This document shows positions 3,312 to 19,017 of a DNA stretch of 64,000 nt, in pieces. The notes below the pieces were generated by a model, which was not told the DNA's origin, did no database searches, and worked only from the letters and a program-made list of their open reading frames with translations. The translations under genes and the position numbers were made by a program. Positions within the stretch are counted from its first letter, which is position 1. Each line of letters starts with the position of its first letter. The stretch comes from Leisingera sp. ANG-M1 (GTDB taxonomy: Bacteria > Pseudomonadota > Alphaproteobacteria > Rhodobacterales > Rhodobacteraceae): contig NZ_JWLC01000015.1 in assembly GCF_000813745.1 (NCBI RefSeq), forward strand, positions 62,001 to 126,000. The letters are read 5' to 3'.

Positions 3312-3701
3312 TCATAACCAGTAGATGACGATAGCGGCGATTGCGATTGCTGACAGGAAAGCCTTCGGGCATCTGTCGTATCGCGTTGCAACTCGTCGCC
3401 AATCCTTGAGCCTGCCGAACATGATCTCAATGCGGTTGCGGCGTTTGTAGCGTCGCTTGTCGTATCGGATGGGCTTCTTTCGCTGCCTTCGGCCAGGGAT
3501 GCAGGCCTTTATCCCTTTGTCTTGCAACGCTTCTCTGAACCAATCTGCATCGTATCCACGATCTCCAAGCAGCCAATCCACGTCCGGCAGGCTGTTCAGC
3601 AGGGCCTTCGCACCGATATAATCACTGACCTGACCGGCAGTCACAAAGAAGTTCAACGGGCGCCCCTGGCTATCACAGATTGCATGTAGCTTCGTGTTCA
3701 T
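3312..3701 (-). CDS. IS5-family transposase, C-terminal frame (orfB)
   Basis: This frame carries the second and third catalytic acids of the DDE transposase: the Asp in WLLGDRGYDADW and the Glu in RNRIEIMFGRLK, each in its normal family context. It has no ribosome binding site of its own that I would trust; translation probably comes from a -1 slip on the A5G6 run at 3735-3745 (plus-strand C6T5), which joins it to orfA and gives the expected continuous sequence through IGRTKGGMNTK. The annotated ATG at 3701 is only the first in-frame methionine. Confidence 0.85.
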   Translation of the reverse strand: MNTKLHAICDSQGRPLNFFVTAGQVSDYIGAKALLNSLPDVDWLLGDRGYDADWFREALQDKGIKACIPGRRQRKKPIRYDKRRYKRRNRIEIMFGRLKDWRRVATRYDRCPKAFLSAIAIAAIVIYWL

Positions 3702-3721
3702 GCCGCCCTTGGTCCGGCCAA

Positions 3722-4069
3722 TCAGGCGTCCTCGCCCCCCTTTTTGACCCCAAGGCTAGACGCCGTGCGGTGCGCCTTCAGATAGGTCGCGTCGATCATA
3801 ATGGTCTTTACCTCGCCGTGATCGGCGGACAGTCCGATCATCATTTCAGCGAAGATGCCCTTATCACTCCATCGCTTCCAACGGTTGTACAAGGTCTTGT
3901 GCGGCCCGTACTCTTTGGGCGCATCACGCCACCGTAACCCGTTACGATTGATGAATATTATGCCGCTAAGGACACGCCTGTCATCAACGCGAGGCTTGCC
4001 ATGGGACTTCGGAAAATAGGGCGCTAGACGGGCCATTTGCTCGTCGCTCAACCAGAAAAGATCAGACAT
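3722..4069 (-). CDS. IS5-family transposase, N-terminal frame (orfA)
   Basis: It encodes the N-terminal helix-turn-helix part of the transposase (MSDLFWLSDEQMARL, then RWRDAPKEYGPHKTLYNRW) and the first catalytic Asp in TIMIDATYLKAHRT. The frame ends just after the A5G6 slippery run. The start at 4069 fits the family's usual beginning; an in-frame ATG at 4120 lies too close to the inverted repeat to be likely. A -1 shift fuses it to orfB to make the full DDE enzyme. Confidence 0.85.
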   Translation of the reverse strand: MSDLFWLSDEQMARLAPYFPKSHGKPRVDDRRVLSGIIFINRNGLRWRDAPKEYGPHKTLYNRWKRWSDKGIFAEMMIGLSADHGEVKTIMIDATYLKAHRTASSLGVKKGGEDA

Positions 4070-4398
4070 CGTCACCGCTTGTTTTGGGCGTGCTGAATCA
4101 CGCCATAAAACGGAAATCAATGGGTCCTGAGCCTAGGGGGCAAAGGACCAGACCGGGACCAACCGGACTTTCGCTACAGGCGCAGCATGGCCAGTTCCAC
4201 GCGTCTGCTTTGCGCATAAACCAAACTTCGCAAAGTCTGGAGGACAGCTCATTGTGGACATTGACAAAGAAGTTTGTGGCAGCACTGCAGCCCGCAGAAC
4301 GCCGACGTTCACTGTAAGCAAGTACTCGGCAGGGGTTACGGAAACACACTTAAACGGGTATATGCTGAAGTAGAATCGTCTAATGCAGGTTATTACCC

Positions 4399-6429
4399 TT
4401 GATCAAGATAGATTTTCACATCCATACAAAAAAGAGCATCCTAGATGCAGAATTCGACTTCTCCCTCGCGAAACTAAACGAATACATTGCGAGCGCAAAC
4501 CTAAATTGTATTGCGATTACTAATCACAACCTGTTCGACAGAGAGCAGTTTATTATGATTAGAGACTCTGTATCGGTGCCAGTATTTCCGGGCATTGAAG
4601 TTGATCTTTGCAAGGCTCAAATTCTTGTGTTTAGCGACGGGCAAGACCTCGATGGATTTGAATCCCAGTGCAGCCAAATCTCGTCTATTTGTGCAGAGGT
4701 AGGAGCATCGGTCTCCATTGAAGATTTCAAAGAAATTTTTGGAGATTTGGGCAAGTATATATTGATTCCTCACTATGACAAAAAGCCTGCCATAGATGAG
4801 GCTACGCTTGCCCAACTTGCTCCCCATGTGACGTCAGGAGAAGTAAGCAGCGCAAAGAAGTTCATGTACTGCATGAATAGTGCTGAGAGATTAGTCCCAG
4901 TGTACTTTAGTGATTGTCGTATTCGGGACGAACTTGATCCGTTGCCCACGCGTCAAACCTATCTAGATTGCAGCGAACCGACCTTTAGCGCGATCAAAGA
5001 GTGCCTTCGAGACAAAACCAAGGTTGCGCTTTCAAAAGCAGATGGCAACCGACTGTTTCAAGTGTTTGAGAACGGGCAACAACTTTCCACAGGTCTGAAC
5101 GTGGTCTTAGGAGAAAGGTCATCTGGAAAGTCATATACGCTTGAGGCGCTAAAGAAACGCTTTCCCGCAGCGCATCATATCCGACAGTTTGCTTTGGTTG
5201 CTAGAGATCCTGACGAAGATGAGAAGAAGTTCAACTCATACCTGACCCGCAAGCAAGGTCTCTTTTCGAAGGAATATCTCACTGCCCTGCAACAGGTCAT
5301 TGAGGACGTGCTTGAAATTGACCTGGAAGAAGATGAGCGTCAGGTCGATGGATATCTCTCTTCGCTGATGAGCTTTGCCCGCGAGCGGGAAAGACACGAT
5401 TCATTTTCGAAGGCCAGAATCTACAGTGAAGATCCATTTCCAGATCGGAACCTAAAGGGTCTCCAAGACCTGATCGCTTCAACCAAGAACCTTATCAGCA
5501 ATGTCGAGTTCAAGGAGACCATTACCAAGCATCTCGCTCGCGACGCCCTAATCGCTCTCTACGTTGATCTAATGCAACAATACGCGCGCCAAGAGGAGCT
5601 GCGACTGAAAAGGGTTTGGGTCAACGACCTTGTCCAAAACATAAAGTCTAAGCTTCAACTACGATCAGCAGCACCGAGGATATCTGACGTCGACTTGTAT
5701 GATGTCGCGTTGAACAAAAAGAAAATCGCCCGGTTCGAAGAAATCTCGAAGCTGGCTCGATTGCCAAAGACACCTCTGCGCAAGAGCATGCGTGGTTTCT
5801 CTGTTGTTGCCGAAGTTGGCCCTTACAACGGCACACAGGAGATGTGGAACGTATTGAGGCGGCGCTCGGCGTCATTCGCAAATGCTTTCAAGGTATATGA
5901 TGAGCCATATAAGTTCTTGAAGGAATTGAAAGCAATTGGTGGTGATGTGAAGCCTCCAGATTTCTCGAAATATTTCGTGAAAATCGACTATCGCATCCTG
6001 AATAAGGATGGGTTTGATGCTTCGGGCGGCGAAAGGTCCGAGTTTTTCCTGCTCGACGAGATCGAAGGTGCTTCGGAACACGAAATGCTATTGATCGATG
6101 AACCGGAATCATCATTTGACAACTCATTCCTAAAAGATGACGTAAACGCGCTTATCAAGGAGATGGCAAAGAAGATGCCGGTCGTCGTTGTCACTCATAA
6201 CAATACAGTCGGCATGACTATTAAACCAGACTATATGCTGTTTACTCAGAAAGCTATTGAGGATGGAGAAATCGTATGGCGTACATACTCTGGTTATCCT
6301 ACCAGTAAGAAGCTTACATCTCCGGACGGCGCGGAAGTAGATACTCTGGGTGTAGTGCTTGGAAGCCTCGAAGCTGGTTCAGAAGCATATGAAGAAAGAA
6401 GGCAGAGCTATGAAAATCTTAAAGATTGA
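4399..6429 (+). CDS. PHP-domain / ABC-type ATPase fusion, probable defence protein (Ppl-like)
   Basis: Residues 1-215 form a polymerase/histidinol-phosphatase (PHP) domain: metal-binding motifs DFHIHT (5-10), TNHN (41-44), EVD (67-69), PHY (124-126) and FSD (170-172). Residues 230-640 are an SMC/ABC-like ATPase: Walker A GERSSGKSY (238-246), a charged helical middle that may be coiled coil, signature ASGGERSEF (541-549), Walker B LLIDEPE (564-570) and switch VTHNN (598-602). All catalytic positions look intact. PHP-ATPase fusions were reported as anti-phage proteins (Ppl). Inferred role: ATPase senses infection, PHP hydrolyses nucleic acid or a nucleotide. No ATG is available; TTG 4399 follows an in-frame stop. 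Its end overlaps the next gene by 20 bp. No signal peptide; cytosolic. Confidence 0.8.
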   Translation: MIKIDFHIHTKKSILDAEFDFSLAKLNEYIASANLNCIAITNHNLFDREQFIMIRDSVSVPVFPGIEVDLCKAQILVFSDGQDLDGFESQCSQISSICAEVGASVSIEDFKEIFGDLGKYILIPHYDKKPAIDEATLAQLAPHVTSGEVSSAKKFMYCMNSAERLVPVYFSDCRIRDELDPLPTRQTYLDCSEPTFSAIKECLRDKTKVALSKADGNRLFQVFENGQQLSTGLNVVLGERSSGKSYTLEALKKRFPAAHHIRQFALVARDPDEDEKKFNSYLTRKQGLFSKEYLTALQQVIEDVLEIDLEEDERQVDGYLSSLMSFARERERHDSFSKARIYSEDPFPDRNLKGLQDLIASTKNLISNVEFKETITKHLARDALIALYVDLMQQYARQEELRLKRVWVNDLVQNIKSKLQLRSAAPRISDVDLYDVALNKKKIARFEEISKLARLPKTPLRKSMRGFSVVAEVGPYNGTQEMWNVLRRRSASFANAFKVYDEPYKFLKELKAIGGDVKPPDFSKYFVKIDYRILNKDGFDASGGERSEFFLLDEIEGASEHEMLLIDEPESSFDNSFLKDDVNALIKEMAKKMPVVVVTHNNTVGMTIKPDYMLFTQKAIEDGEIVWRTYSGYPTSKKLTSPDGAEVDTLGVVLGSLEAGSEAYEERRQSYENLKD

Positions 6430-6706
6430 AAACGAAAACGGATACTTCTGTCTTGAACAAGGCGGCGAGTGGCAGCCTATTGATGCAATTGACAAAACTG
6501 CATTGATTAAGCTCTTGGATCTGTATCTTGAAAGCGATGTTGAGATGGATTGCCCAGACGGGCATAGCGTCAGCAATCAGGCACACGCCATTATTTACCG
6601 GGGGATTTTCGATAAGTTGTCACAGCTCGCAGGCGAAAAGAGCAGATTTAAGGACGAGAGCGAAACGGTTTATCTTGATGAGATGCAGAAATACACAGGC
6701 CAGTGA
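6410..6706 (+). CDS. Small partner protein overlapping the PHP-ATPase gene
   Basis: A 98-residue acidic protein starting MKILKIENENGYF, with GEWQPIDAIDKTALIKLLDLYL and a C-terminal helix ending LDEMQKY. I do not know a named domain, although short proteins with this start are familiar as hypothetical neighbours of defence genes. The ATG at 6410 lies 20 bp inside the end of the PHP-ATPase gene, with GAAGG upstream, which argues for translational coupling and a shared function, such as a regulator, inhibitor or substrate adaptor. In-frame ATGs further upstream would enlarge the overlap and are less likely. Confidence 0.65.
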   Translation: MKILKIENENGYFCLEQGGEWQPIDAIDKTALIKLLDLYLESDVEMDCPDGHSVSNQAHAIIYRGIFDKLSQLAGEKSRFKDESETVYLDEMQKYTGQ

Positions 6707-6986
6707 ATAACCCGTCGTTGCGTCATTGCTCTCTGTCTTCTCCGCTATTTCGACGAATGTCAGCTTTGGCATTCCGTCCAACTTTCCATGCCACAGCAGT
6801 GAGATTCCGCTTTTCGGTTTCAGGTGCAGGAGATCAATGTCTGTTTGGGGCACAGACCAGTGCGTTTGTCGGCTACTCGCAAAGTAGACCTGTTCTGACG
6901 CTCGTTATCTAAGTCATATCGACATAGGTTGTCTGAAGCGATTGAAAGAGCTTGGGTAATGTATAGCTCAGAGATTTAGGATTTTG

Positions 6987-8180
6987 ATGTCATCAGCAAC
7001 TTTTTCTCCACCTGCCAGTTTCAATCCTCCGAAGGAGAGCTGCCTCTACCCTGAACTGTTCGTGCTTCATCGTGAGATTCATGGGTTGTCTCGAAGTTTG
7101 GACGATTTCCCACGCCTCCTGAATATCCAGAGGCGATTGATTAAAGCGATTTCAGAGGCCGAGAGAGAGATTAGAGCGGCAAAATTGTCCAACGATGATC
7201 CCCGAGGTTGGCAATACGTGCGGTACAACTTCCTGTGTCTTGGGGACTCCATAGCATTTCTTTACATGGACAGGTTTGCGCTGAAACTAACCTACTTCGA
7301 TGTCGATACGGAAAATCCAAAGCAAAGTGGTGGTTTTATCACAGATAAGGTTGGGCACGCCAACGAGGTATCATTTCTGGAAGATGCGCTATCGCACAAC
7401 GTACCCGCTGTGCTGTGCGACATTACTAATGTACTGCGCTACGGCGATATTTGCCTTCTGGGAGATAGCGATCCTGTTCCTATCGAAATTAAGTCGTCCA
7501 AGACGACAGACCGTCGAGGAAAGCGCCAAAAATCGAAACTGAAGACCCTCAATAGCTTTCTTACGTCGGACCGCGGTGATGGATTTCGGGGACTTCCGGG
7601 CACAACGTTCAGGACCGCATTTTCTGTTCCTCCAAGATCGTACTCGGACCAACTGCAAGAGGCTATTGCGCGAGCTAACTCAATCGGCTCTTCGAGTTTT
7701 GAGGTCGATGGCTGCCTGAAGGTCGCAGTCATAATGGAAGAAGATCCAGACTATGATGCGCTCTTCGGTGGATTTGGCTCATCCAGGGTTTTGGTGAATG
7801 CTGTTAATCAGATCAAAACCAACAAGTTATGGGGATGCTACTACCCGTTCCCCTTAACGCTTTCAGAACCAATGCATTTTGAAAGATTTGTTCGGGGTGA
7901 GATTCATATATTTACGCTTCTCGACTTGGATGCGTTTGAGGACAACTTGGCGCCAGAGGGGACGAGGCTATCCCTTGACGCTGATGAAAACCATATCCAG
8001 TGCAGTATCCATTTCTCGAATTTATTCGCAGACGACCAAGAAGCCTACTTCATTATTGGAGATCACATGATGTGCCGCATATGGACGGATTTCTTGTGTC
8101 CGAGTTGGATCGTTCAGAACTCGGTAAATTCAGTAACAAACAATGCGGAAACGATTTGGGAGGCAGCCGATCCGCCGTAA
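6987..8180 (+). CDS. PD-(D/E)xK nuclease-like protein
   Basis: About 397 residues. A restriction-endonuclease-like core is visible near residues 125-170: a helix with a Glu (HANEVSFLED), the Asp of YGDICLL, then PIEIKSSK with the E-x-K pair, in the spacing usual for PD-(D/E)xK enzymes. The basic segment right after it (TTDRRGKRQKSK) may bind nucleic acid. No helicase, methyltransferase or known specificity domain is present, so it is not an ordinary restriction enzyme. The start ATG at 6987 has AGG six bases upstream. It lies 280 bp after the PHP-ATPase pair on the same strand and could be a separate defence gene or the last gene of that set. Function otherwise unknown. Confidence 0.6.
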   Translation: MSSATFSPPASFNPPKESCLYPELFVLHREIHGLSRSLDDFPRLLNIQRRLIKAISEAEREIRAAKLSNDDPRGWQYVRYNFLCLGDSIAFLYMDRFALKLTYFDVDTENPKQSGGFITDKVGHANEVSFLEDALSHNVPAVLCDITNVLRYGDICLLGDSDPVPIEIKSSKTTDRRGKRQKSKLKTLNSFLTSDRGDGFRGLPGTTFRTAFSVPPRSYSDQLQEAIARANSIGSSSFEVDGCLKVAVIMEEDPDYDALFGGFGSSRVLVNAVNQIKTNKLWGCYYPFPLTLSEPMHFERFVRGEIHIFTLLDLDAFEDNLAPEGTRLSLDADENHIQCSIHFSNLFADDQEAYFIIGDHMMCRIWTDFLCPSWIVQNSVNSVTNNAETIWEAADPP

Positions 8181-8492
8181 AACAGGATAAACTATGGTCA
8201 TCAAGTAAGCTTGTCCGCAGGATATGCCACTTTCGCAAAGCGGCTGTTGGGGTGCTAGAGCGAGCGCCTGCTTCGTCCAGTCAGCCGTCTTTCTTGGCGC
8301 TGCTTAGCACCGGTAACGACGTACTGCGCATGCGAGAGGCAACCAGGGGCCGATGGCAGCTGTGGGCTCTGAGCCGCCCAATGAGGAAACCAGACTGTTT
8401 CGCGCTTTCAGCCATTTGCGGCCCTATTCCATCGGTTCCCCCCCCCAACACGCATTGAAAATTGGTAGGGTAGTCCGAGCCGTCCGCTTTTA
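8181..8492. other. Gene-less stretch between convergent cargo genes
   Basis: No believable gene in either strand; only short accidental frames. It contains a C9 run near 8440. No clear terminator hairpin with a T run was seen for either flanking gene. Confidence 0.45.
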
Positions 8493-9200
8493 TTAAGGAC
8501 TTGGGTCTTCGTTGTTGGCAGCAGGCTCAAGTTTGAGGTCTTGCGCACGCATGGTGATCGCCTCATAGGCTTCACTAATCTGGCGAGCATTAATCTGCAG
8601 ATCCCGAGCTACTTCTTCGTATGGCCGCTCATCACCATAACCATTTTCGCGGCGGCGAATCAGCATAAAATCGCTTCCAGGTTCGATAGCTCGCATTTCG
8701 AGACGGATTATTGAAACCAGGCGCTGCGCGGCGCTGACCAAGGATTTAAGCGCAAACTGCAAGTCAGGATCATGAAAGCGCGTTTCCGCGCTCCGCCATT
8801 CATCCGCCAACTCAATCGCTCCACTGATTCGCTCGAGACGGAAGCCATTTGCAAATTGATGATCTCGAATGAAGTCGACCGTGTCTCGTGGAAGTCTTTG
8901 ACGAAGTCGATTGAACATGAGCTGATCGGGAGATGGCGACCTTTTTGGCCAGATGTACTGACCGATGATCAGGCTGGTGCCGAACACAACCAAAAAAAGC
9001 CCAGTATAGATTTCGAGGGGGCCCAAAGCAGGATCGGAGATGCCAAGCCATTGAAACAGTGCCAGAAGCCAAGCGGGGACCGCCAGTATGCCCAACCCAG
9101 CGCTCAAGATCCAGAAGCCCGCTTTCCGAATTGGATTTCCGAACAGAAGGCGCTTCACCACGTCTGTCAAAAATTCAAACCATTTTCCTTCATTGAGCAT
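8493..9200 (-). CDS. Two-helix membrane protein of unknown function
   Basis: A 235-residue protein with two predicted membrane helices near residues 27-52 (AGFWILSAGLGILAVPAWLL) and 62-84 (LEIYTGLFLVVFGTSLIIG), followed by a soluble, helical, charged C-terminal domain of about 150 residues. Both ends should face the same side, probably the cytoplasm. I do not recognise the soluble domain. In a defence-type neighbourhood, proteins of this plan can be membrane-acting effectors, but nothing here proves it. The ATG at 9200 has only a weak ribosome binding site. Confidence 0.5.
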   Translation of the reverse strand: MLNEGKWFEFLTDVVKRLLFGNPIRKAGFWILSAGLGILAVPAWLLALFQWLGISDPALGPLEIYTGLFLVVFGTSLIIGQYIWPKRSPSPDQLMFNRLRQRLPRDTVDFIRDHQFANGFRLERISGAIELADEWRSAETRFHDPDLQFALKSLVSAAQRLVSIIRLEMRAIEPGSDFMLIRRRENGYGDERPYEEVARDLQINARQISEAYEAITMRAQDLKLEPAANNEDPSP

Positions 9201-9761
9201 TTCGATAACGCTGCCCCTTCCAGTGTCCTGTTGCGAGACAAGAAATATCCATTAATTCTAAATCTGCCTTTGCATTCGCGTCCATAGCTCGGGGCAAAAG
9301 GGAGCGCAACTTCTGGGAACGTGGTGAGGCACCATCCTGCCCTGGAGAACGTTCGAAAAGGCGCATCCAGCACAACCCCGTGCGCAAAGTAGGCCGACCT
9401 TTTCAAGATCGCTATCTGAGCATTTTTTCCACTCGAACGAACAGGCTGCCCCGAGCTTCATAAAAGTGTTGCAAAGGTTCGTATCCGCCTTGAGGTGTCA
9501 TGGCCGATCAGCACATCGGTCGGTGAGCTGCCTTGTGCGCCCGCATCATTCTACGATGACGGTTGTGGCCGCTAAGGGCTCAGACGGCCGCTCGAGGTGC
9601 AAAAACAGATGAAATGTTTTTGTCAAATGCTTCTTGCCTCTAACATCCGCAAGGCTCATGAGTGAGAGCTTTGTCAAGTACAGCTCTCAATTCTTGTGAA
9701 GAAAGCAAAGCAAACTCCAGTATTTACGACTAGCCTCATCTGCAGTGGAATTGGATTATCT
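9201..9761. other. Gene-less stretch in the cargo region
   Basis: Only short overlapping frames without family features were found. The composition resembles the flanking cargo. It may hold the promoter for the gene at 8493-9200 and the end of the transcript from 12873, but I cannot point to specific sites. Confidence 0.4.
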
Positions 9762-10424
9762 TCACCTCACGATCGGCGGCTCATCCAAAAGAATCCGCCC
9801 TGAGTTGAGATAATCCGGAATTTCGTAGTACGCACTTAATGCAATACCCAGAATTATCGAAAAAATGCCACCAAGTGCGAAAATAGCAAAAGTAATAGCC
9901 AATCCAACAATCGTGCCTCTCAACAACTCCACTTTAATGTTGTGAAGCTTCTCACCCGACTTCTCTTCTGGAATTTTATCGAGCACCACCCCAATAAACC
10001 GATAGACGCAAAGCTTCTTTTCGACCAATGAAACAAAAGTATATGCTATCGCCTTGAAAGCCAAGAGAACCCAAAACAGAGACAAAAAACCCGAAAAAAC
10101 CAACAACACTCCGCCATAGAAGGAGCCGTTGGAATACTCTTGACTACGCGAGTATATGAATGCTGCAAGTGTCGCCAGGAGACCCAATCTAACCAAGGCG
10201 CCTACAAAATCAGAAGTACGCTTCATACTATCGTATGTTTTTTTCTTCGCCTCGGCAAGCTCTTCATCATCTATATCAAAGCTAGCAGCATCGACAACAC
10301 TTGGCTCCTTAGCACCGTGGTCAGTTTTCGGCCTTGCAACCTTAGATCTCTCTGTCACTTCATCCCTCCCTCCGCTTAACCGCGAATTAAGCGGATACTC
10401 TTCATCTGTCAAAAGTTTCTTCAC
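9762..10424 (-). CDS. Multi-pass membrane protein downstream of the STAND NTPase
   Basis: About 220 residues. A charged N-terminal cytosolic part of about 80 residues is followed by three or four hydrophobic segments: FVGALVRLGLLATLAAFIY, VLLVFSGFLSLFWVLLAF and GLAITFAIFALGGIFSIILG. I chose the GTG start at 10424 because GAGGAGG sits five bases upstream; a GTG at 10451 is weaker. It begins 46 bp after the stop of the XRE-STAND gene on the same strand, so the two likely form an operon. Pairing of a sensor NTPase with a membrane protein fits a sensor-effector layout in which activation damages or depolarises the membrane. This is inferred from context; the family is unknown to me. Confidence 0.55.
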   Translation of the reverse strand: MKKLLTDEEYPLNSRLSGGRDEVTERSKVARPKTDHGAKEPSVVDAASFDIDDEELAEAKKKTYDSMKRTSDFVGALVRLGLLATLAAFIYSRSQEYSNGSFYGGVLLVFSGFLSLFWVLLAFKAIAYTFVSLVEKKLCVYRFIGVVLDKIPEEKSGEKLHNIKVELLRGTIVGLAITFAIFALGGIFSIILGIALSAYYEIPDYLNSGRILLDEPPIVR

Positions 10425-10470
10425 ACTTGCCTCCTCATTTACAATGAGCACAAATCAGTGAAGGGGCTGG

Positions 10471-12873
10471 CTACACAAATTGAGTCAAGGCGATTTTTTC
10501 CATTACAACACCATCATCGATCATTTTTCGCCTCGAAATTACAGTTGCCATTTCATGATCCAAGAAAGACTGTAAATTCGCCTCTTCCGAAACGACCTTA
10601 CTGTAAGCCACGCGAGCCTCTTCCAGTTTCCCCATACCCAGATAAGCGTCACCTAGAGTGCGGTAAGTGCTACTATATCCTTCCGCTGTTGTAGTTGAAG
10701 CGCCCAACGCTATGGCCTTGTGGGCGAACTCCAAGGCAGCAGAATAGTCCGTATCAAGTATGGCGGCTCTTGCCAGGTAACAATTGATGTCAGTACTGAT
10801 ACCAAGGTCTCTGCAAAGAGCCTCATATTCTCCAGCCAACTTTCTCGCCTCGCTGGGTAGTTTTTTCGCCATCGCGATTTCGAATTTTGCATGGATGAAG
10901 CTTGCAAAAAATCTGTTAAGGCGAGTTTTGTTAACAGATGGATCAGATTTTAACCTATCAAATACGCTTTCAATTTCCTTAAGCGTTGTCTGCGCTGTTT
11001 GCAGGTCGTTCAAATAAACGTGAGTTATGCTTTCAACTACCGCTGACATAGCCCCAAACAGTTCGCGTCCCTTTGTAGAAAGGTCGACAATCTTGCTCTG
11101 CTTCAAGTATGAGGTAGCTGCCGGGATATCTCCCGACAACATTTCAAGGTACCCAACTTCATATAAAACTCTCCCCCCAAGTTCCGTAATTTCATTCGTG
11201 TCTAAGCGCGACTTTTCTAGTTTCACCACCTCGTCCAACATAATTTGACATTGTTGGAGCAAATCCTGTCGTTGTTCATGGTCATCATTCTGCGCGCGAC
11301 GAATACTTGTAGCAATTTCCAGCATTAATTCTGAACGGTTTTCAATCGGCCCTTTGTAGGAAACTCCGCCTTCAATGAAGAAGCGCCCAGCGAGTGCAAA
11401 TTCTTCGTGCATGTGTCGACCGGTAGCCATGAACGAAAGGCGCTCAGTTGTTGAAATTTCGTGATACAGAAGACTATAAAAAAATGTTGTGAGCACGTCT
11501 TTGCGGATCTCGGCCTCAATATCCTCGACTGGTGCATTTGCGGCCTTAAGGCTTGAAATGGAACGTCGAACAATTCGATTTCGTATATTTTCGAAATATC
11601 GAATATCATAGTTTTGCAGTGCAGCCATTACCAGCTGGCCCCAAGCTGGATGGCGGAGGCAGCGGTACCTGTCTGTTGCCGTCTGCGCGACTTCTTGCAG
11701 CGCAACCAGTTTAGGGAGGGTCGTTTTGGCGTCGATTTCGTCTAGAAGTATGGCAAGCTCCGCCGCGCTGAACTCTACTTCCATCCCCCCCAGCATCCAG
11801 ACTAACAACAAGGAAACTTTGTCAGTGTCTTTAGTGTCATGGGAGGAGTTTGCGCCTCTTTGATCGAAGATACGGTCGATCTCAGCGCTTACTGCTTGAT
11901 ATGCTAAGTCAATATTGATCACGTTGGAGCTTTCCTTGATTGCGGTCGCTAAAGCTGCGGCCAACGCAACTAAGCTTTTGCCGCACTGATGGAAGAGATG
12001 TTCAAATTCCGAGAGCTGTTCGATGCTTGTTGTATTTTGCGCTATCAGGCGCGTTGCAATCTCGTTGCCGTGAACTTGGACTTCTGTAAATTTAGCACCT
12101 CTCCATCCAGATATAAGGGTTCGCACCTCTTCTAGTTGATCTGGGCGTGTGGTAACGATGATAGCGGAATTCTCCAGATCAATGCTCCGCAGAGCCTCAA
12201 AGGTGAACATCGCTCGATTTTCGAACACATACTCATGAATGTCTTCGATGATGAAAAGGTTGTTTCTCTTTAGTTGTTGTGAGCGTATCTCGACTTTGTC
12301 GAGAAACTCTCTATATGCCTCAGATCTAATCCAGTCTTCACCAGTAGAAAATTCGCCGGAGAGAGGGAGAAGTGTTACCTCCCACGTCCCAGGGTTTTCA
12401 TGTTTCCAATCTGCAATGAGAAGCTCTACTGTCGAGCTCTTTCCACTCGCGATAGGTCCTGTCAAAAGAACATGTCGGTGTGACTTAGAAAACAGTGCTT
12501 CCTTGGCACTCTCATAGCCAGGATGCTCCACCAAAGGTTGCAGCTTTTCGCTGTCAATTGCGTGGGGATGCAAGTGCTGTCGCCTTTGCTCTCGATACTC
12601 CTGCCAGCGCTCAGGGGTTAGGTCATAAACTTCCGGCCGTATGCCGCGAACCCTATCCATTTCCAGCTTTGAAATGCCTAAGGCACGATTAATCTTGGAG
12701 AGATTGTTTGGACTAACCGACTGTTTTAGTTTGGAAAATTTTGAAATTACACTCTTTCCACCACCGATACCGGCTTCCTCGGCTAGTTTCTCCTGAGACC
12801 AACCGCGAGCCTTGCGCCGCTCGGCGACAAGCTCCATGTAGAGCTCTTGCCATTCTTCTATTTTTACCACCAA
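10471..12873 (-). CDS. XRE-STAND-TPR NTPase, probable sensor
   Basis: An 800-residue protein in three parts. Residues 8-75 are an XRE-type helix-turn-helix (RRKARGWSQEKLAEEAG). Residues 115-340 are a P-loop NTPase of STAND/NACHT type: Walker A GPIASGKSS (139-147), Walker B LFIIED (206-211), sensor TTRP (241-244). The rest is helical and ends in tetratricopeptide-like repeats (for example ARAAILDTDYSAALEFAHKA and GDAYLGMGKLEEARVAYSKV). STAND proteins use C-terminal repeats to bind a trigger and then oligomerise. The N-terminal XRE domain is unusual for a defence NTPase and could mean autoregulation or DNA sensing. The TTG start at 12873 is supported by GAGGT six bases upstream; GTG 12870 is an alternative. 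The membrane-protein gene follows 46 bp downstream. Confidence 0.75.
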   Translation of the reverse strand: MVVKIEEWQELYMELVAERRKARGWSQEKLAEEAGIGGGKSVISKFSKLKQSVSPNNLSKINRALGISKLEMDRVRGIRPEVYDLTPERWQEYREQRRQHLHPHAIDSEKLQPLVEHPGYESAKEALFSKSHRHVLLTGPIASGKSSTVELLIADWKHENPGTWEVTLLPLSGEFSTGEDWIRSEAYREFLDKVEIRSQQLKRNNLFIIEDIHEYVFENRAMFTFEALRSIDLENSAIIVTTRPDQLEEVRTLISGWRGAKFTEVQVHGNEIATRLIAQNTTSIEQLSEFEHLFHQCGKSLVALAAALATAIKESSNVINIDLAYQAVSAEIDRIFDQRGANSSHDTKDTDKVSLLLVWMLGGMEVEFSAAELAILLDEIDAKTTLPKLVALQEVAQTATDRYRCLRHPAWGQLVMAALQNYDIRYFENIRNRIVRRSISSLKAANAPVEDIEAEIRKDVLTTFFYSLLYHEISTTERLSFMATGRHMHEEFALAGRFFIEGGVSYKGPIENRSELMLEIATSIRRAQNDDHEQRQDLLQQCQIMLDEVVKLEKSRLDTNEITELGGRVLYEVGYLEMLSGDIPAATSYLKQSKIVDLSTKGRELFGAMSAVVESITHVYLNDLQTAQTTLKEIESVFDRLKSDPSVNKTRLNRFFASFIHAKFEIAMAKKLPSEARKLAGEYEALCRDLGISTDINCYLARAAILDTDYSAALEFAHKAIALGASTTTAEGYSSTYRTLGDAYLGMGKLEEARVAYSKVVSEEANLQSFLDHEMATVISRRKMIDDGVVMEKIALTQFV

Positions 12874-12976
12874 TTTGCTACCTCGCCTCGATGATCTCCT
12901 TCAGGCGGAGCCCCATAGTTGTAGGCACGATCGAATTGCTCTTCTGGCCAGTGAGCTTCAAAAAAGGACATGCCTA

Positions 12977-13111
12977 ATGTTGAAGTTCGCACAAATCCAC
13001 GGTTACGCGCTTATCGCGATGATCTATGTCTCTGCACTGTATGGAGTCGACAAGATCCTTGTTAACTCATGCGCTGCAATAATCTATTCACTTATGTCCC
13101 GCTCACATTAA
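12977..13111 (+). CDS. Possible small hydrophobic protein
   Basis: A 44-codon frame beginning MLKFAQIHGYALIAMIYVSA, with AAGGA about ten bases before the ATG. Its middle is hydrophobic enough for one membrane helix. It lies in an otherwise gene-less 320-bp interval, divergent from the STAND gene. The evidence is only the frame, the ribosome binding site and the hydrophobicity, so this may be chance. Confidence 0.22.
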   Translation: MLKFAQIHGYALIAMIYVSALYGVDKILVNSCAAIIYSLMSRSH

Positions 13112-13141
13112 ACAACTTAAGCGTGGAGCTTCAAGTCACTA

Positions 13142-13182
13142 TGGGGAGGGGCTCAGTCTGGTGGTACCGTACGCCCTCCCCA
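13142..13182 (-). terminator. Hairpin at the end of the phage early operon
   Basis: The 9-base arms TGGGGAGGG and CCCTCCCCA are separated by 23 bases and lie just past the stop of the Mor-like gene (13194). There is no T run, so it may need Rho or simply protect the transcript end. Confidence 0.45.
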
Positions 13183-13193
13183 CGCGCCAAACG

Positions 13194-13769
13194 CTACTTA
13201 GGAGTAATCAAGCGAGAGAGCCAATAATCCGCAGCCTCTAGCAGGGTGGTCACGGTCTTTTTCTCCACGCAGATCTCCCTAGCGATCTCTGCCTCGTTGG
13301 CGCCCTGAAAGTGCAATCGCAGCACATGATCAGCCAGATAAGCTTTTTTCAGCGCATGACAGGATGGAAGCTCAAGGATGCAGTTCGCGTGACTGAAACT
13401 CAGTCTGCGGGCTGCCTTGATGCCGATTAGGGCGACGATACGGTGCTCTTCGGTCATCTCCGCTGGCACATAGAGCTGGCGCCGCCAGCGGCGGCGCCCG
13501 CTAGGACGTGTCCCCTCAACCAGCCGCACTGCCTTTTCTCGACCGACCACCTCGGCGATTTCCTCGACACTCTCCGGCAGTGGCACCCGTTGCCCCCTGC
13601 CAACTGCAAATTCCGCCAAGGGGTATCGCACCACCTCAGGCATTTCGAGCTGCCTGGCTATCGCTGCTGGCGCTGGACGTGACGGCGCTGAACGCCCAGC
13701 GCGTTTTGCCTGATCCAGAAGACTGCGCAGCTGCCGGTTCTCTTCCTTTAGATCCTCGAGCACCCCCAC
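13194..13769 (-). CDS. Mor-like phage transcription activator with a duplicated motif
   Basis: A 191-residue protein. Residues 1-25 look like a coiled coil (LEDLKEENRQLRSLLDQ). Two segments then share one pattern: AEVVGREKAVRLVEG ending in LYVPAEM, and IVALIGIKAARRLSF ending in ILELPSC. This is the pattern of the N-terminal dimer domain of Mu Mor/C activators. A C-terminal helix-turn-helix (NEAEIAREICVEKKTVTTLL) follows. In Mu-like phages such a protein turns on middle or late genes. Here it is the last gene of the leftward early operon, four bases after DUF1064, and the late genes it would control have been lost. Confidence 0.55.
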   Translation of the reverse strand: MGVLEDLKEENRQLRSLLDQAKRAGRSAPSRPAPAAIARQLEMPEVVRYPLAEFAVGRGQRVPLPESVEEIAEVVGREKAVRLVEGTRPSGRRRWRRQLYVPAEMTEEHRIVALIGIKAARRLSFSHANCILELPSCHALKKAYLADHVLRLHFQGANEAEIAREICVEKKTVTTLLEAADYWLSRLITPK

Positions 13770-16359: not shown

Positions 16360-16662
16360 ATGGACATCGATGCAAAAGAACGCCTGGCACAGACGGGCGA
16401 CATTAGCCCGGACGCAATTCGAACTCGCCTTCTGGCAGCTCGAAAATCGATAGGCATGCAGCAACTCGATGTAGCCAAGGAACTCGGGCTGAAGAAAACA
16501 ACCTTCCACTCACAAGAGAGTAGAGGTGCTCCGGGACTGAAGACTATGCGCTATTATTATCGACAACACCGCATAGACTTTAACTTCATCTTACACGGCG
16601 ATTTCGCGCAACTCCCTCAAGACGTTCAGGATCGCCTCTTCGCTGCCTTGCAAAGCGAATAG
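16360..16662 (+). CDS. Short XRE-type repressor-like protein
   Basis: 100 residues. The helix-turn-helix spans about residues 18-60 (IRTRLLAARKSIGMQQLDVA, then GLKKTTFHSQESRG). The C-terminal 40 residues may serve for dimerisation; there is no LexA-type peptidase domain, so induction by RecA cleavage is not expected. It is divergent from the Cro-like gene, the normal place of an immunity repressor. Confidence 0.65.
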   Translation: MDIDAKERLAQTGDISPDAIRTRLLAARKSIGMQQLDVAKELGLKKTTFHSQESRGAPGLKTMRYYYRQHRIDFNFILHGDFAQLPQDVQDRLFAALQSE

Positions 16663-17649: not shown

Positions 17650-17856
17650 ATGGGCCGCATGACACCTATTGCTGTGGCGGAGAAAGGCGCGGCGCAGCTT
17701 CTTGATATGAAGCCAGCGGAGTTCCGCGAGCTGGTCGCTCAAGGCGTGCTCCCGCGGCCGCGTAAGGTTGGCCCCTTCGAACGCTGGGACGCGGAAGAAC
17801 TGCGGGCAGTGATGCGCGGCGATTTTGTCGATGGCTTCGAGGACGTGAAATGGTGA
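17650..17856 (+). CDS. Excisionase/AlpA-like DNA-binding protein
   Basis: 68 residues. The pattern EKGAAQLLDMKPAEFRELVA, then GVLPRPRKVGPFERWDAEEL is that of a MerR/AlpA-type winged helix in which the domain begins with an entry helix and ends with a wing and a W-x-x-x-E-L helix. Small proteins of this type next to integrases act as excisionases. AAGGAGACC lies just upstream of the ATG. The gene overlaps the integrase start by 7 bp. Confidence 0.65.
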   Translation: MGRMTPIAVAEKGAAQLLDMKPAEFRELVAQGVLPRPRKVGPFERWDAEELRAVMRGDFVDGFEDVKW

Positions 17857-18848
17857 AGAAGAAATTCACAACGACAAAGAAGGTCAAAGGGCGGCTTTAT
17901 CAGTACTTCCGCAAGGACGGCCGCTATGTGCGACTGCCCGACGACCCAAACAGCGAAGAGTATGATCGGGAATATTGGCGGCTGATGCGCGGCGGCGGTG
18001 CGCTGTCTCAGCGCTTCACCTTCGAGAAGCTGATCAAGAGCTACAAGCAGTCGCCCAAGTGGGACCGCTTGGCCCCGCGGACCAAGGCCGACTATTCGAA
18101 GGTTCTGGAATACATTTCCGACAAGCTGGGCAGTAAAGATCCGACCAAGATGCGCCGCTCCACAATCATCGAGGCGCAAATGGCAAACCGCCACCGGGCG
18201 CGCTTTGCCAACTACCTCCCCCACATGCTGTCCATCCTGTTCGAGCACGCAATTGACTTGGACTGGCAAAGGGACAACCCGGCCAAGGGGATCCCTAAGA
18301 TCAAAACAGGTGAGGGCCACAAGCCTTGGCCCGCCTCTGCAGTCACCGTGTTTCGCAAGCATGCGGACGGGCTGGCCCTGCTGATTTTCGAGCTGGCCCT
18401 CGGAACGGGACAGCGCGCCTCAGACCTGACCCGGATGGAATGGGAACACATCGAGGACGGCGGCATCTGGGTCACCCAGGGCAAAACAAAAGCCCGCCTC
18501 TGGATACCCTTCACTGCTCGCCTCGCCGCAGTCCTGGCAGCGACCAAACGGACCAGCCTGCGCTATATCCTGGCCGATGAGTTCGGCCGGGCGCTGAACT
18601 ATGACCAGCTTCAAAAGAAAGTGATGGCAGTGCGTAAGACTGCCGGGCTCACAGCATATTCGCTGCACGGCCTGCGCTACAGCGCTGCCGGTGAGCTGGC
18701 AGAGGCAGGCTGCACTGATCAGCAAATCGCAGCTATCACCGGCCACAAGAGCCTTTCTATGGTCCAGAAATATTCGAAAGGCGCGAGTCAAAAACGCCTG
18801 GCGAAGGAGGCTCAAAGCCTCAGGGAACAGAACAAAAACGGATCATGA
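17850..18848 (+). CDS. Tyrosine recombinase / phage integrase
   Basis: 332 residues. An N-terminal arm-binding part (KKVKGRLYQYFRKDGRYVRL) and a SAM-like core-binding domain (70-160) precede the catalytic domain. Catalytic residues visible: Arg in GTGQRASDL, the HxLR box as SLHGLRYSA, His in ITGHKS and the nucleophile Tyr in VQKYSKGA. Everything needed for activity is present. The stop is 79 bp from the 3' end of tRNA-Ser, so that gene is the likely attachment site. The start overlaps the excisionase-like gene, suggesting a common transcript. Confidence 0.92.
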   Translation: MVKKKFTTTKKVKGRLYQYFRKDGRYVRLPDDPNSEEYDREYWRLMRGGGALSQRFTFEKLIKSYKQSPKWDRLAPRTKADYSKVLEYISDKLGSKDPTKMRRSTIIEAQMANRHRARFANYLPHMLSILFEHAIDLDWQRDNPAKGIPKIKTGEGHKPWPASAVTVFRKHADGLALLIFELALGTGQRASDLTRMEWEHIEDGGIWVTQGKTKARLWIPFTARLAAVLAATKRTSLRYILADEFGRALNYDQLQKKVMAVRKTAGLTAYSLHGLRYSAAGELAEAGCTDQQIAAITGHKSLSMVQKYSKGASQKRLAKEAQSLREQNKNGS

Positions 18849-18927: not shown

Positions 18928-18955
18928 TGGCGGGGAGACAGGGATTCGAACCCTG
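18928..18955. other. Probable attachment site of the element (tRNA-Ser 3' end)
   Basis: The 3' end and T arm of the tRNA gene point at the integrase 79 bp away, the classical layout of a tRNA-targeting tyrosine recombinase. I did not find a second copy of this sequence in 1-18900, so the other end probably lies left of the window. The exact core cannot be set from one end. Confidence 0.5.
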
Positions 18956-19017
18956 GGAACGCTCTCACGTTCAACGGTTTTCAAGACCGCCGCATTCGAC
19001 CACTCTGCCACCTCCCC
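18928..19017 (-). tRNA. tRNA-Ser (anticodon UGA)
   Basis: The minus strand folds as a class II tRNA: acceptor arms GGGGAGG and TCTCCCC with discriminator G and encoded CCA, a long variable arm, the T arm (CAGGGTTCGAATCCCTG) and an anticodon loop with TGA. The foreign element lies directly on its 3' side. Confidence 0.95.

What the first reader, a model, noticed from the sequence alone, without database searches (positions are those of the whole stretch)
9762..12873. XRE-STAND-TPR NTPase with a downstream multi-pass membrane protein
The order DNA-binding domain, NTPase, TPR in one protein, followed within 46 bp by a membrane protein, looks like a complete sensor-effector pair. Most described STAND defence proteins carry their effector domain at the N-terminus. 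Here that place is taken by an XRE domain, and the effector may be a separate membrane protein. This is my best candidate for an undescribed system in the window.
Basis: partly seen in the sequence, partly recalled or inferred. Interest (0 to 1): 0.75.

Follow-up and report, generated by a model that had tools for sequence, protein, structure and literature searches.

The report
Prophage NLR-like sensor with membrane partner
A leftover virus in a marine bacterium carries two neighbouring genes, an NLR-like switch protein that can probably bind DNA and a membrane protein, in a spot where related viruses often keep anti-virus genes, so the pair may well be a defence system, although no relatives have been found to confirm it.

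Summary
An 800-aa protein (10471-12873, minus strand) has an N-terminal XRE/HTH_3 domain, a P-loop NTPase matching Pfam nSTAND3 only at threshold level, and C-terminal TPRs. After 46 bp follows a 220-aa protein with three, possibly four, membrane helices.

Indirect evidence supports defence. The pair starts behind the late activator of a tRNA-Ser prophage remnant. Of 20 distinct related prophages, 19 have a measurable 2.1-8.7 kb variable slot there, lower in G+C than its locus, and 14 of 20 hold a known or candidate defence gene in it (IetAS, DRT, Shedu, type III R-M and others). Ten control phage genes gave none. The window's cargo also holds PDC-M49A/B.

Best reading: a two-gene prophage defence, STAND sensor plus separate membrane effector, working like RexAB. 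Main rival: a ligand-responsive transcription regulator, since DNA-binding-STAND-TPR is the known order of AfsR. New variant of a known kind; function untested.

The parts
10471..12873 (-). CDS of the XRE-STAND-TPR protein, 800 aa, TTG start behind GAGGCGAGG
12670..12825 (-). XRE/HTH_3 domain, residues 17-68
   Evidence: Pfam PF01381 E 4e-7, above cut-off
12121..12531 (-). P-loop NTPase, nSTAND3-like, residues 115-251
   Evidence: PF20720, 26.6 bits vs cut-off 27.2; 28.3 bits in the six-frame search
12436..12459 (-). Walker A GPIASGKS, residues 139-146
12241..12258 (-). Walker B-like LFIIED, residues 206-211
10588..10779 (-). TPR region recognised by Pfam, residues about 699-762; helical repeats may begin earlier
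   Evidence: PF13424, PF07719; helices in a low-confidence model
9762..10424 (-). CDS of the membrane protein, 220 aa from GTG 10424 (open frame from 10451); charged N-terminus without predicted structure, three or four membrane helices
10149..10211 (-). membrane helix 1
   Evidence: hydropathy, helix in model
10041..10124 (-). membrane helix 2
   Evidence: hydropathy, helix in model
9825..9932 (-). membrane helix 3, 36 hydrophobic residues, possibly a hairpin
   Evidence: hydropathy, helix in model
12874..13193 (-). 320-bp leader between the late activator and the STAND gene; 9-nt perfect inverted repeat at 13142-13150/13174-13182
   Evidence: promoter and terminator scans no better than shuffles
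13194..13769 (-). phage late transcriptional activator, PHROG 836; fixed right edge of the cargo slot
4399..12873 (.). low-G+C cargo block (45-52% per gene against 58-62% for the five flanking phage genes listed)
4399..6429 (+). PHP-ATPase, PADLOC candidate PDC-M49A; second defence candidate in the cargo
6410..6706 (+). PDC-M49B partner of the PHP-ATPase
   Evidence: scanned from 6416
6984..8180 (+). 398-aa cargo gene of unknown function, PHROG 14906
   Evidence: one phage relative, 56% identical
8493..9200 (-). 235-aa cargo gene with two predicted membrane helices, no family match
3312..4120 (-). IS4/5-type transposase in two frames; left edge of the cargo
17850..18848 (+). tyrosine integrase of the host prophage, beside tRNA-Ser 18928-19017

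Best explanation
The two genes form a prophage-borne anti-phage (superinfection-exclusion or abortive-infection) module. The TPR end of the XRE-STAND-TPR protein recognises a product of an incoming phage. ATP-dependent opening and oligomerisation of the NTPase then activates the separate membrane protein encoded behind it, which disturbs the inner membrane and stops the infected cell. The XRE domain most likely docks the protein on DNA, for auto-regulation of the operon or for sensing at DNA, and does not kill. Shown: gene order, domains, membrane helices and location in a slot that often carries defence genes in related prophages. Inferred: the trigger, the switch, the coupling of the two proteins and the membrane effect.
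For: Order HTH-NTPase-TPR with an intact Walker A. Same strand, 46-bp gap, own strong ribosome site for the second gene. The pair begins 320 bp behind the late activator; nucleotide homology to the two closest relatives (L049, L050) stops 15-26 bp before the end of that gene. The slot between the late activator and the next conserved gene could be measured in 24 loci, 19 distinct prophages: 2.1-8.7 kb, G+C below that of the locus in 24 of 24, by 0.5 to 8 points. In 14 of 20 distinct prophages the slot holds at least one PADLOC match at E <= 1e-5, among them IetA/IetS, Drt6, SduA, type III R-M and dGTPase; 0 of 10 conserved phage genes tested as control matched. PDC-M49A (E 6e-270) and PDC-M49B lie in the same cargo in the window. 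Precedents: STAND-TPR proteins in satellite hotspots (PMC9122126, passages), Avs5 with nSTAND3 and C-terminal repeats (PMC12931631, passages), prophage sensor plus membrane effector in RexAB (PMC12894663, passages).
Against: No homolog of either protein was found, so the pairing has no comparative support and the two genes may be neighbours by chance within a cargo block. No family model reaches its cut-off for the membrane protein (weak DUF2663, E 0.19). The nSTAND3 match is at threshold and such matches occur in every genome searched. An XRE domain at the N-terminus points to transcription control, as in AfsR. PADLOC models include candidates and methyltransferases that may serve phages in other ways; six of 20 slots gave no match (five tested in part, one not tested). 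The prophage is incomplete, so the cargo could be decaying.
Confidence: 0.45

Rival explanations
1. The large protein is a ligand-responsive transcription regulator of the AfsR/MalT logic: inducer and ATP release the XRE domain, which then controls the cargo promoter. The membrane protein is the regulated product, either a defence effector or a lysogenic-conversion protein, with no direct protein contact.
For: DNA-binding, STAND and TPR stand in the same order in AfsR, where NOD and TPR inhibit the DNA-binding domain and ATP relieves this (PMC10936776, passages). HTH_3 is the best-scoring domain of the protein. Defence operons may be under XRE control, as lypABC is under CdxB (PMC13236601, passages).
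Against: No match to a metabolic or antibiotic regulator family in Pfam or NCBIfam, no BTAD or GerE among the matches. The gap between the genes (46 bp) leaves little room for a second promoter, so the target would be the protein's own promoter.
Confidence: 0.3
2. Two independent cargo genes: a one-protein defence or regulator (XRE-STAND-TPR) beside an unrelated superinfection-exclusion membrane protein.
For: No conserved pairing is seen, because neither protein was found elsewhere. Cargo slots mix unrelated genes: the window block alone holds PDC-M49, a PHROG 14906 gene and a second membrane protein.
Against: Same strand, 46-bp spacing, no terminator-like site or inverted repeat between the two genes, while 561 bp separate the membrane gene from the 235-aa cargo gene.
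Confidence: 0.15
3. Control of the prophage itself or of a host gene (lysis-lysogeny or a host-beneficial trait), or a decaying orphan, with no role against other phages.
For: The XRE domain resembles phage repressors (PHROG 8, 1373). The terminase region conserved in related prophages is missing here.
Against: A separate XRE-like gene sits in the control region (16360-16662, HTH_3 below cut-off). The reading frames are intact and the block is foreign in G+C. The slot often holds defence models.
Confidence: 0.1

Closest known systems
AfsR and MalT-type STAND transcription activators
   Same: AfsR: order DNA-binding domain, NTPase, TPR-type sensor in one chain (PMC10936776, passages). MalT: a STAND activator (same paper).
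   Different: HTH is XRE/HTH_3, not SARP or LuxR type. No BTAD, GerE or MalT model among the Pfam or NCBIfam matches. Prophage cargo with a membrane-protein neighbour.
Avs5 and other AVAST / bacterial NLR-like defence proteins
   Same: nSTAND3-type NTPase followed by TPR-type repeats (Avs5, PMC12931631, passages); STAND-TPR proteins in mobile-element hotspots (PMC9122126, passages).
   Different: No N-terminal enzyme (SIR2, TIR, nuclease) found in the chain; the effector, if any, is a separate membrane protein. No Avs model among the PADLOC matches.
RexAB and RexAB-type prophage systems
   Same: Prophage-borne two-gene set of a DNA-binding cytosolic protein and a membrane protein (PMC12894663, passages).
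   Different: RexA is described in those passages as a DNA-binding protein, with no NTPase or TPR mentioned. No RexA or RexB model among the matches of either protein. A works-like resemblance only.
LypABC, CARD-NLR-like system of Caulobacter
   Same: ATPase-TPR protein (LypB) in an alphaproteobacterial immune operon under XRE control (PMC13236601, passages).
   Different: There the XRE regulator CdxB is a separate protein; here XRE is fused to the NTPase. No CARD domain among the matches here.
PF20720 nSTAND3 proteins of the same bacterial family (L009, L010)
   Same: nSTAND3 NTPase in 762-aa proteins.
   Different: They score 160.5 and 137.5 bits and show no XRE domain to the eye; their N-termini look like restriction-type nucleases, also by eye (no family search made).

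Membership tests
STAND NTPase (nSTAND3 clade) | Match to the PF20720 profile over its cut-off | tested here: inconclusive
   26.6 bits vs 27.2 in the whole-protein scan, 28.3 in the six-frame search; matches at E <= 0.001 occur in 248 of 248 genomes, over cut-off in 22
STAND NTPase (nSTAND3 clade) | Walker A and Walker B motifs | tested here: met
   GPIASGKS at 139, LFIIED at 206
STAND NTPase (nSTAND3 clade) | C-terminal superstructure-forming repeats | tested here: met
   TPR_12, TPR_2, both at cut-off
STAND NTPase (nSTAND3 clade) | Winged-helix/arm domains after the NTPase | tested here: inconclusive
   model of pLDDT 44 only
AVAST (Avs) defence proteins | N-terminal effector enzyme in the same chain | tested here: not met
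   only HTH families at the N-terminus; no Avs model among the PADLOC matches
AfsR/MalT-type STAND activators | DNA-binding domain plus STAND plus sensor repeats | tested here: met
   with XRE in place of SARP or LuxR HTH and a threshold-level STAND match
AfsR/MalT-type STAND activators | Match to their family models (BTAD, GerE, MalT) | tested here: not met
   absent from the Pfam and NCBIfam results; the model names are recalled
AfsR/MalT-type STAND activators | Inducer-dependent promoter activation | not testable with these tools
   needs DNA-binding and reporter assays
RexAB-type system | Homology of the sensor to RexA or of the membrane protein to RexB | tested here: inconclusive
   no such match in Pfam, PADLOC, PHROGs, but I did not check which of these libraries hold RexA and RexB models and made no direct comparison
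RexAB-type system | Two-gene prophage set of DNA-binding protein plus membrane protein | tested here: met
RexAB-type system | Membrane damage on activation | not testable with these tools
   needs membrane-potential or dye assays
Conserved two-gene defence system | The pair recurs in unrelated genomes | tested here: inconclusive
   no homolog of either protein found, so recurrence could be neither shown nor excluded
Prophage defence hotspot | Variable cargo between two fixed phage genes, rich in defence genes | tested here: met
   for the related prophages; in the window only the late-activator edge is preserved, the other edge is an IS element

The most novel reading that the evidence does not exclude
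An NLR-like RexAB: a STAND receptor held on DNA by its own XRE domain, which senses phage at the DNA or through its TPRs and, instead of carrying an effector, triggers a separately encoded membrane pore. This would make the DNA-bound STAND sensor with a detachable membrane effector a new layout of bacterial immunity.
Probability: 0.17. Interest if true: 0.75.

Novelty: new variant of a known kind. Interest (0 to 1): 0.4.

Why it matters
If the pair works as proposed, bacterial NLR-like receptors can hand their signal to a separate membrane protein while keeping a DNA-binding head, which would link STAND regulators such as AfsR and MalT to STAND immune receptors. More generally, the slot behind the late activator in these Rhodobacterales prophages is a source of testable defence systems; at least two of its cargo proteins (in L049 and L065) match neither PADLOC nor Pfam at the limits used.

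Tried and rejected
Homolog searches for the large protein found nothing beyond itself: own genome 2 matches, itself and an HTH-only match at E 9.9e-4; family 1 of 295 genomes, itself; genus 1 of 21, itself; phylum sample 1 of 398, itself; order sample with residues 75-800, 3 of 390, itself plus two matches at E 0.004 and 0.008 that cover only 58 and 133 residues (their loci were not read further); class sample 2 of 367, itself plus one match at E 9.9e-4. That last one lies in a protein that begins with TPRs and shows no XRE-NTPase start, and a tblastn of the large protein against its 8.1-kb surroundings gave nothing at E <= 1, so it is a TPR-only match. These genome samples overlap. Plasmids and phages by tblastn: none at 1e-5; at E up to 10 only HTH or TPR stretches and one 142-residue match to a minor tail protein at E 6. 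DNA search of plasmids with 9700-13200: none. Pattern scans of genome contigs and viral contigs found none; these see close relatives only. Membrane protein: plasmids none at E up to 10, viral contigs none, family 1 of 198, itself, genus 1 of 21, itself. Phages were not searched with it by tblastn. Positive control for sensitivity: the PHP-ATPase neighbour found 57 plasmid records with the same tblastn.

The Pfam nSTAND3 search of 248 genomes (match list cut by the tool) was tried as a bridge to relatives. Apart from two strong members (L009, L010), whose architecture differs, the listed matches score about 31 bits or less and most are short P-loop-sized stretches. PDB sequence search gave nothing but HTH and TPR matches and one designed or unnamed protein, with E 0.06 to 0.7. 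Both AlphaFold models, made without relatives, are too weak for fold searches, so none was run. Promoter and terminator scans did not exceed shuffles. Two ORFs shared with L054 looked at first like phage genes bounding the slot; they are an IS4/5-type transposase. Another rep-bearing locus in the same genome (L083) has no late activator, so it could not inform on the slot. L071 is likewise taken as the prophage of L050/L073. I considered and rejected making a pseudo-alignment of altered copies of the protein to widen the pattern search.
Full report
What is there. The 800-aa protein at 10471-12873 (minus strand) and the membrane protein at 9762-10424 are intact reading frames. The large one carries HTH_3, a P-loop NTPase region and TPRs, in that order. 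Its match to nSTAND3 sits at the threshold: 26.6 bits against a cut-off of 27.2 in one search and 28.3 bits in another, and matches to this profile at E <= 0.001 occur in 248 of 248 genomes, over the cut-off in 22. The Walker motifs are in place. The small one has a charged N-terminus and three or four hydrophobic helices. No family model reached its cut-off for the membrane protein; DUF2663 matched weakly, E 0.19.

Where it lies. The window lies in a genome of 91 contigs. Its genus probably is Leisingera: two genomes of the same genus, G303 and G297, have contigs whose lengths equal those of Leisingera sp. ANG-Vp (49,558 bases) and L. aquimarina DSM 24565 (4,250,010 bases) records that hold the related prophage. 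The genes belong to a prophage remnant: integrase beside tRNA-Ser, replication gene, Holliday-junction resolvase and a late transcriptional activator, PHROG 836. The six genes of the block 4399-12873 have 45-52% G+C, whereas the five phage genes listed around it have 58-62% and three chromosomal genes 64%. On its left lies an IS4/5-type transposase, then tail genes X and D. The terminase region conserved in related prophages was not found in the stretch of contig examined; a terminase of another type lies further left. The prophage is probably defective.

The slot. RusA and the late activator were used to fetch related prophages: 19 loci from viral contigs and 9 from genome contigs, 28 in all. 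Two (L055, L058) gave no late-activator match and one (L080) has only a third of it. Five of the others are second copies of the same prophage, judged by equal slot length and gene positions (L072, L073, L075, L076, L078). That leaves 20 distinct prophages. Nucleotide homology to the window stops 15-26 bp before the end of the late activator in L049 and L050, and earlier in the gene in most others. Downstream comes a stretch whose larger ORFs are mostly found in one prophage only (some smaller ORFs recur in 3 to 7), then a conserved set that leads to the terminase. Its length could be measured in 24 loci, that is 19 distinct prophages: 2.1-8.7 kb, with G+C below that of the whole locus in 24 of 24, though by under one point in L049, L072 and L077. 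In L057 the conserved set was not found.

What the slot carries. I chose 30 larger ORFs from 19 of the 20 prophages; not every slot ORF was tested, and L067 had none of 150 aa or more before its conserved genes. Twenty of 30 matched a PADLOC model at E <= 1e-5: 7 of 10, 6 of 10 and 7 of 10. Two of the ten misses, both in L057, are terminase and portal, so no cargo was tested there. By prophage, 14 of 20 have a match: L050 methyltransferase and CARF protein, L051 IetA/IetS, L052 a MADS2-like match, L053 PDC-S20, L056 dGTPase, L059 PDC-M31A/B, L060 Drt6, L061 SduA, L062 a DUF4238 protein, L064 weak PDC matches with an Mrr domain, L066 methyltransferase and a PDC-M38A-like match, L074 PDC-S28, L077 type III methyltransferase and restriction enzyme, L079 PDC-M68B. 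Five (L049, L054, L057, L063, L065) have none among the ORFs tested. A control of ten conserved phage genes that I picked from five of the loci gave 0 of 10. Caveats: PDC models are candidates, methyltransferases may serve the phage in other ways, and I chose both the slot ORFs and the controls by hand. In the window the same cargo holds PDC-M49A and PDC-M49B.

Relatives. None were found for either protein (details in Tried and rejected). In the 28 prophage loci a tblastn at E <= 1 gave for the large protein only one HTH-sized match, in two copies of one prophage, and one P-loop-sized match, and none for the membrane protein. The same kind of plasmid search found 57 records for the PHP-ATPase neighbour, so the method works and these two proteins are rare or very diverged.

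How it probably works. The protein is built like a STAND switch: a repeat sensor, an ATP-driven switch and an N-terminal output or anchor. In Avs5 and in STAND proteins of satellite hotspots the N-terminal part is an enzyme (PMC12931631, PMC9122126, passages). In AfsR it is a DNA-binding activator, held back by the NTPase and TPR parts and released by ATP (PMC10936776, passages). Here it is an XRE domain and no enzyme is recognised in the chain, while a membrane protein follows directly. Given the defence slot, I judge a sensor with a separate membrane effector most likely (0.45), by analogy with RexAB-type prophage systems (PMC12894663, passages). A regulator of its own operon, with the membrane protein as regulated product, is the main rival (0.3). 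The two are not exclusive: a STAND protein that represses its operon through XRE and releases it on sensing phage would show features of both.

Papers. PMC8195603, PMC12931631, PMC13236601, PMC12169576, PMC13092281, PMC12894663, PMC10936776, PMC8224337 and PMC9122126 were seen as passages found by term search; other papers only in search listings. A search for papers with at least three of 'STAND NTPase', 'XRE', 'phage defense' and 'membrane effector' found none. A search for Leisingera/Phaeobacter prophage defence hotspots listed five papers whose titles and abstract openings do not describe this slot, and a survey of Rhodobacteraceae prophages has no occurrence of 'defense' or 'defence' in its main text (PMC8224337). 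The library is partial, so this does not prove absence.

Verdict. Real and probably defensive by location, with an unproven pairing and a known type of domain order. New variant of a known kind; interest 0.4.

Noticed in passing
L049-L067, L072-L079, directly downstream of the PHROG 836 late activator: A variable cargo slot in Leisingera/Phaeobacter-type prophages with known or candidate defence genes in 14 of 20 distinct prophages; tested cargo ORFs of L049, L063 and L065 match no PADLOC model and could be new systems.
   Followed up: yes
window 4399-6706: PHP-ATPase with a small partner (PADLOC PDC-M49A/B); relatives of the PHP-ATPase in 57 plasmid records, 54 of them Enterococcus or Staphylococcus, 41-54% identical in the ten rows shown.
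   Followed up: partly
window 6984-8180: 398-aa protein of PHROG 14906 with a 56% identical relative in one viral contig (L081); unknown function, in the same cargo. The other cargo genes have no convincing match around it.
   Followed up: partly
window 8493-9200: Second membrane protein of the cargo, two predicted helices and a soluble C-terminal part, no family match; could belong with the pair or stand alone.
   Followed up: no
L003 10949-17011: A terminase of another type (PHROG 38), a ParB-methyltransferase-like protein and a large serine recombinase left of the window: a second or chimeric mobile element next to the prophage remnant.
   Followed up: no
L050:8264-13673: CARF-type protein (PADLOC CARF6) beside a 745-aa protein without PADLOC match and a type II-like methyltransferase: possible signalling-linked defence cluster.
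   Followed up: no
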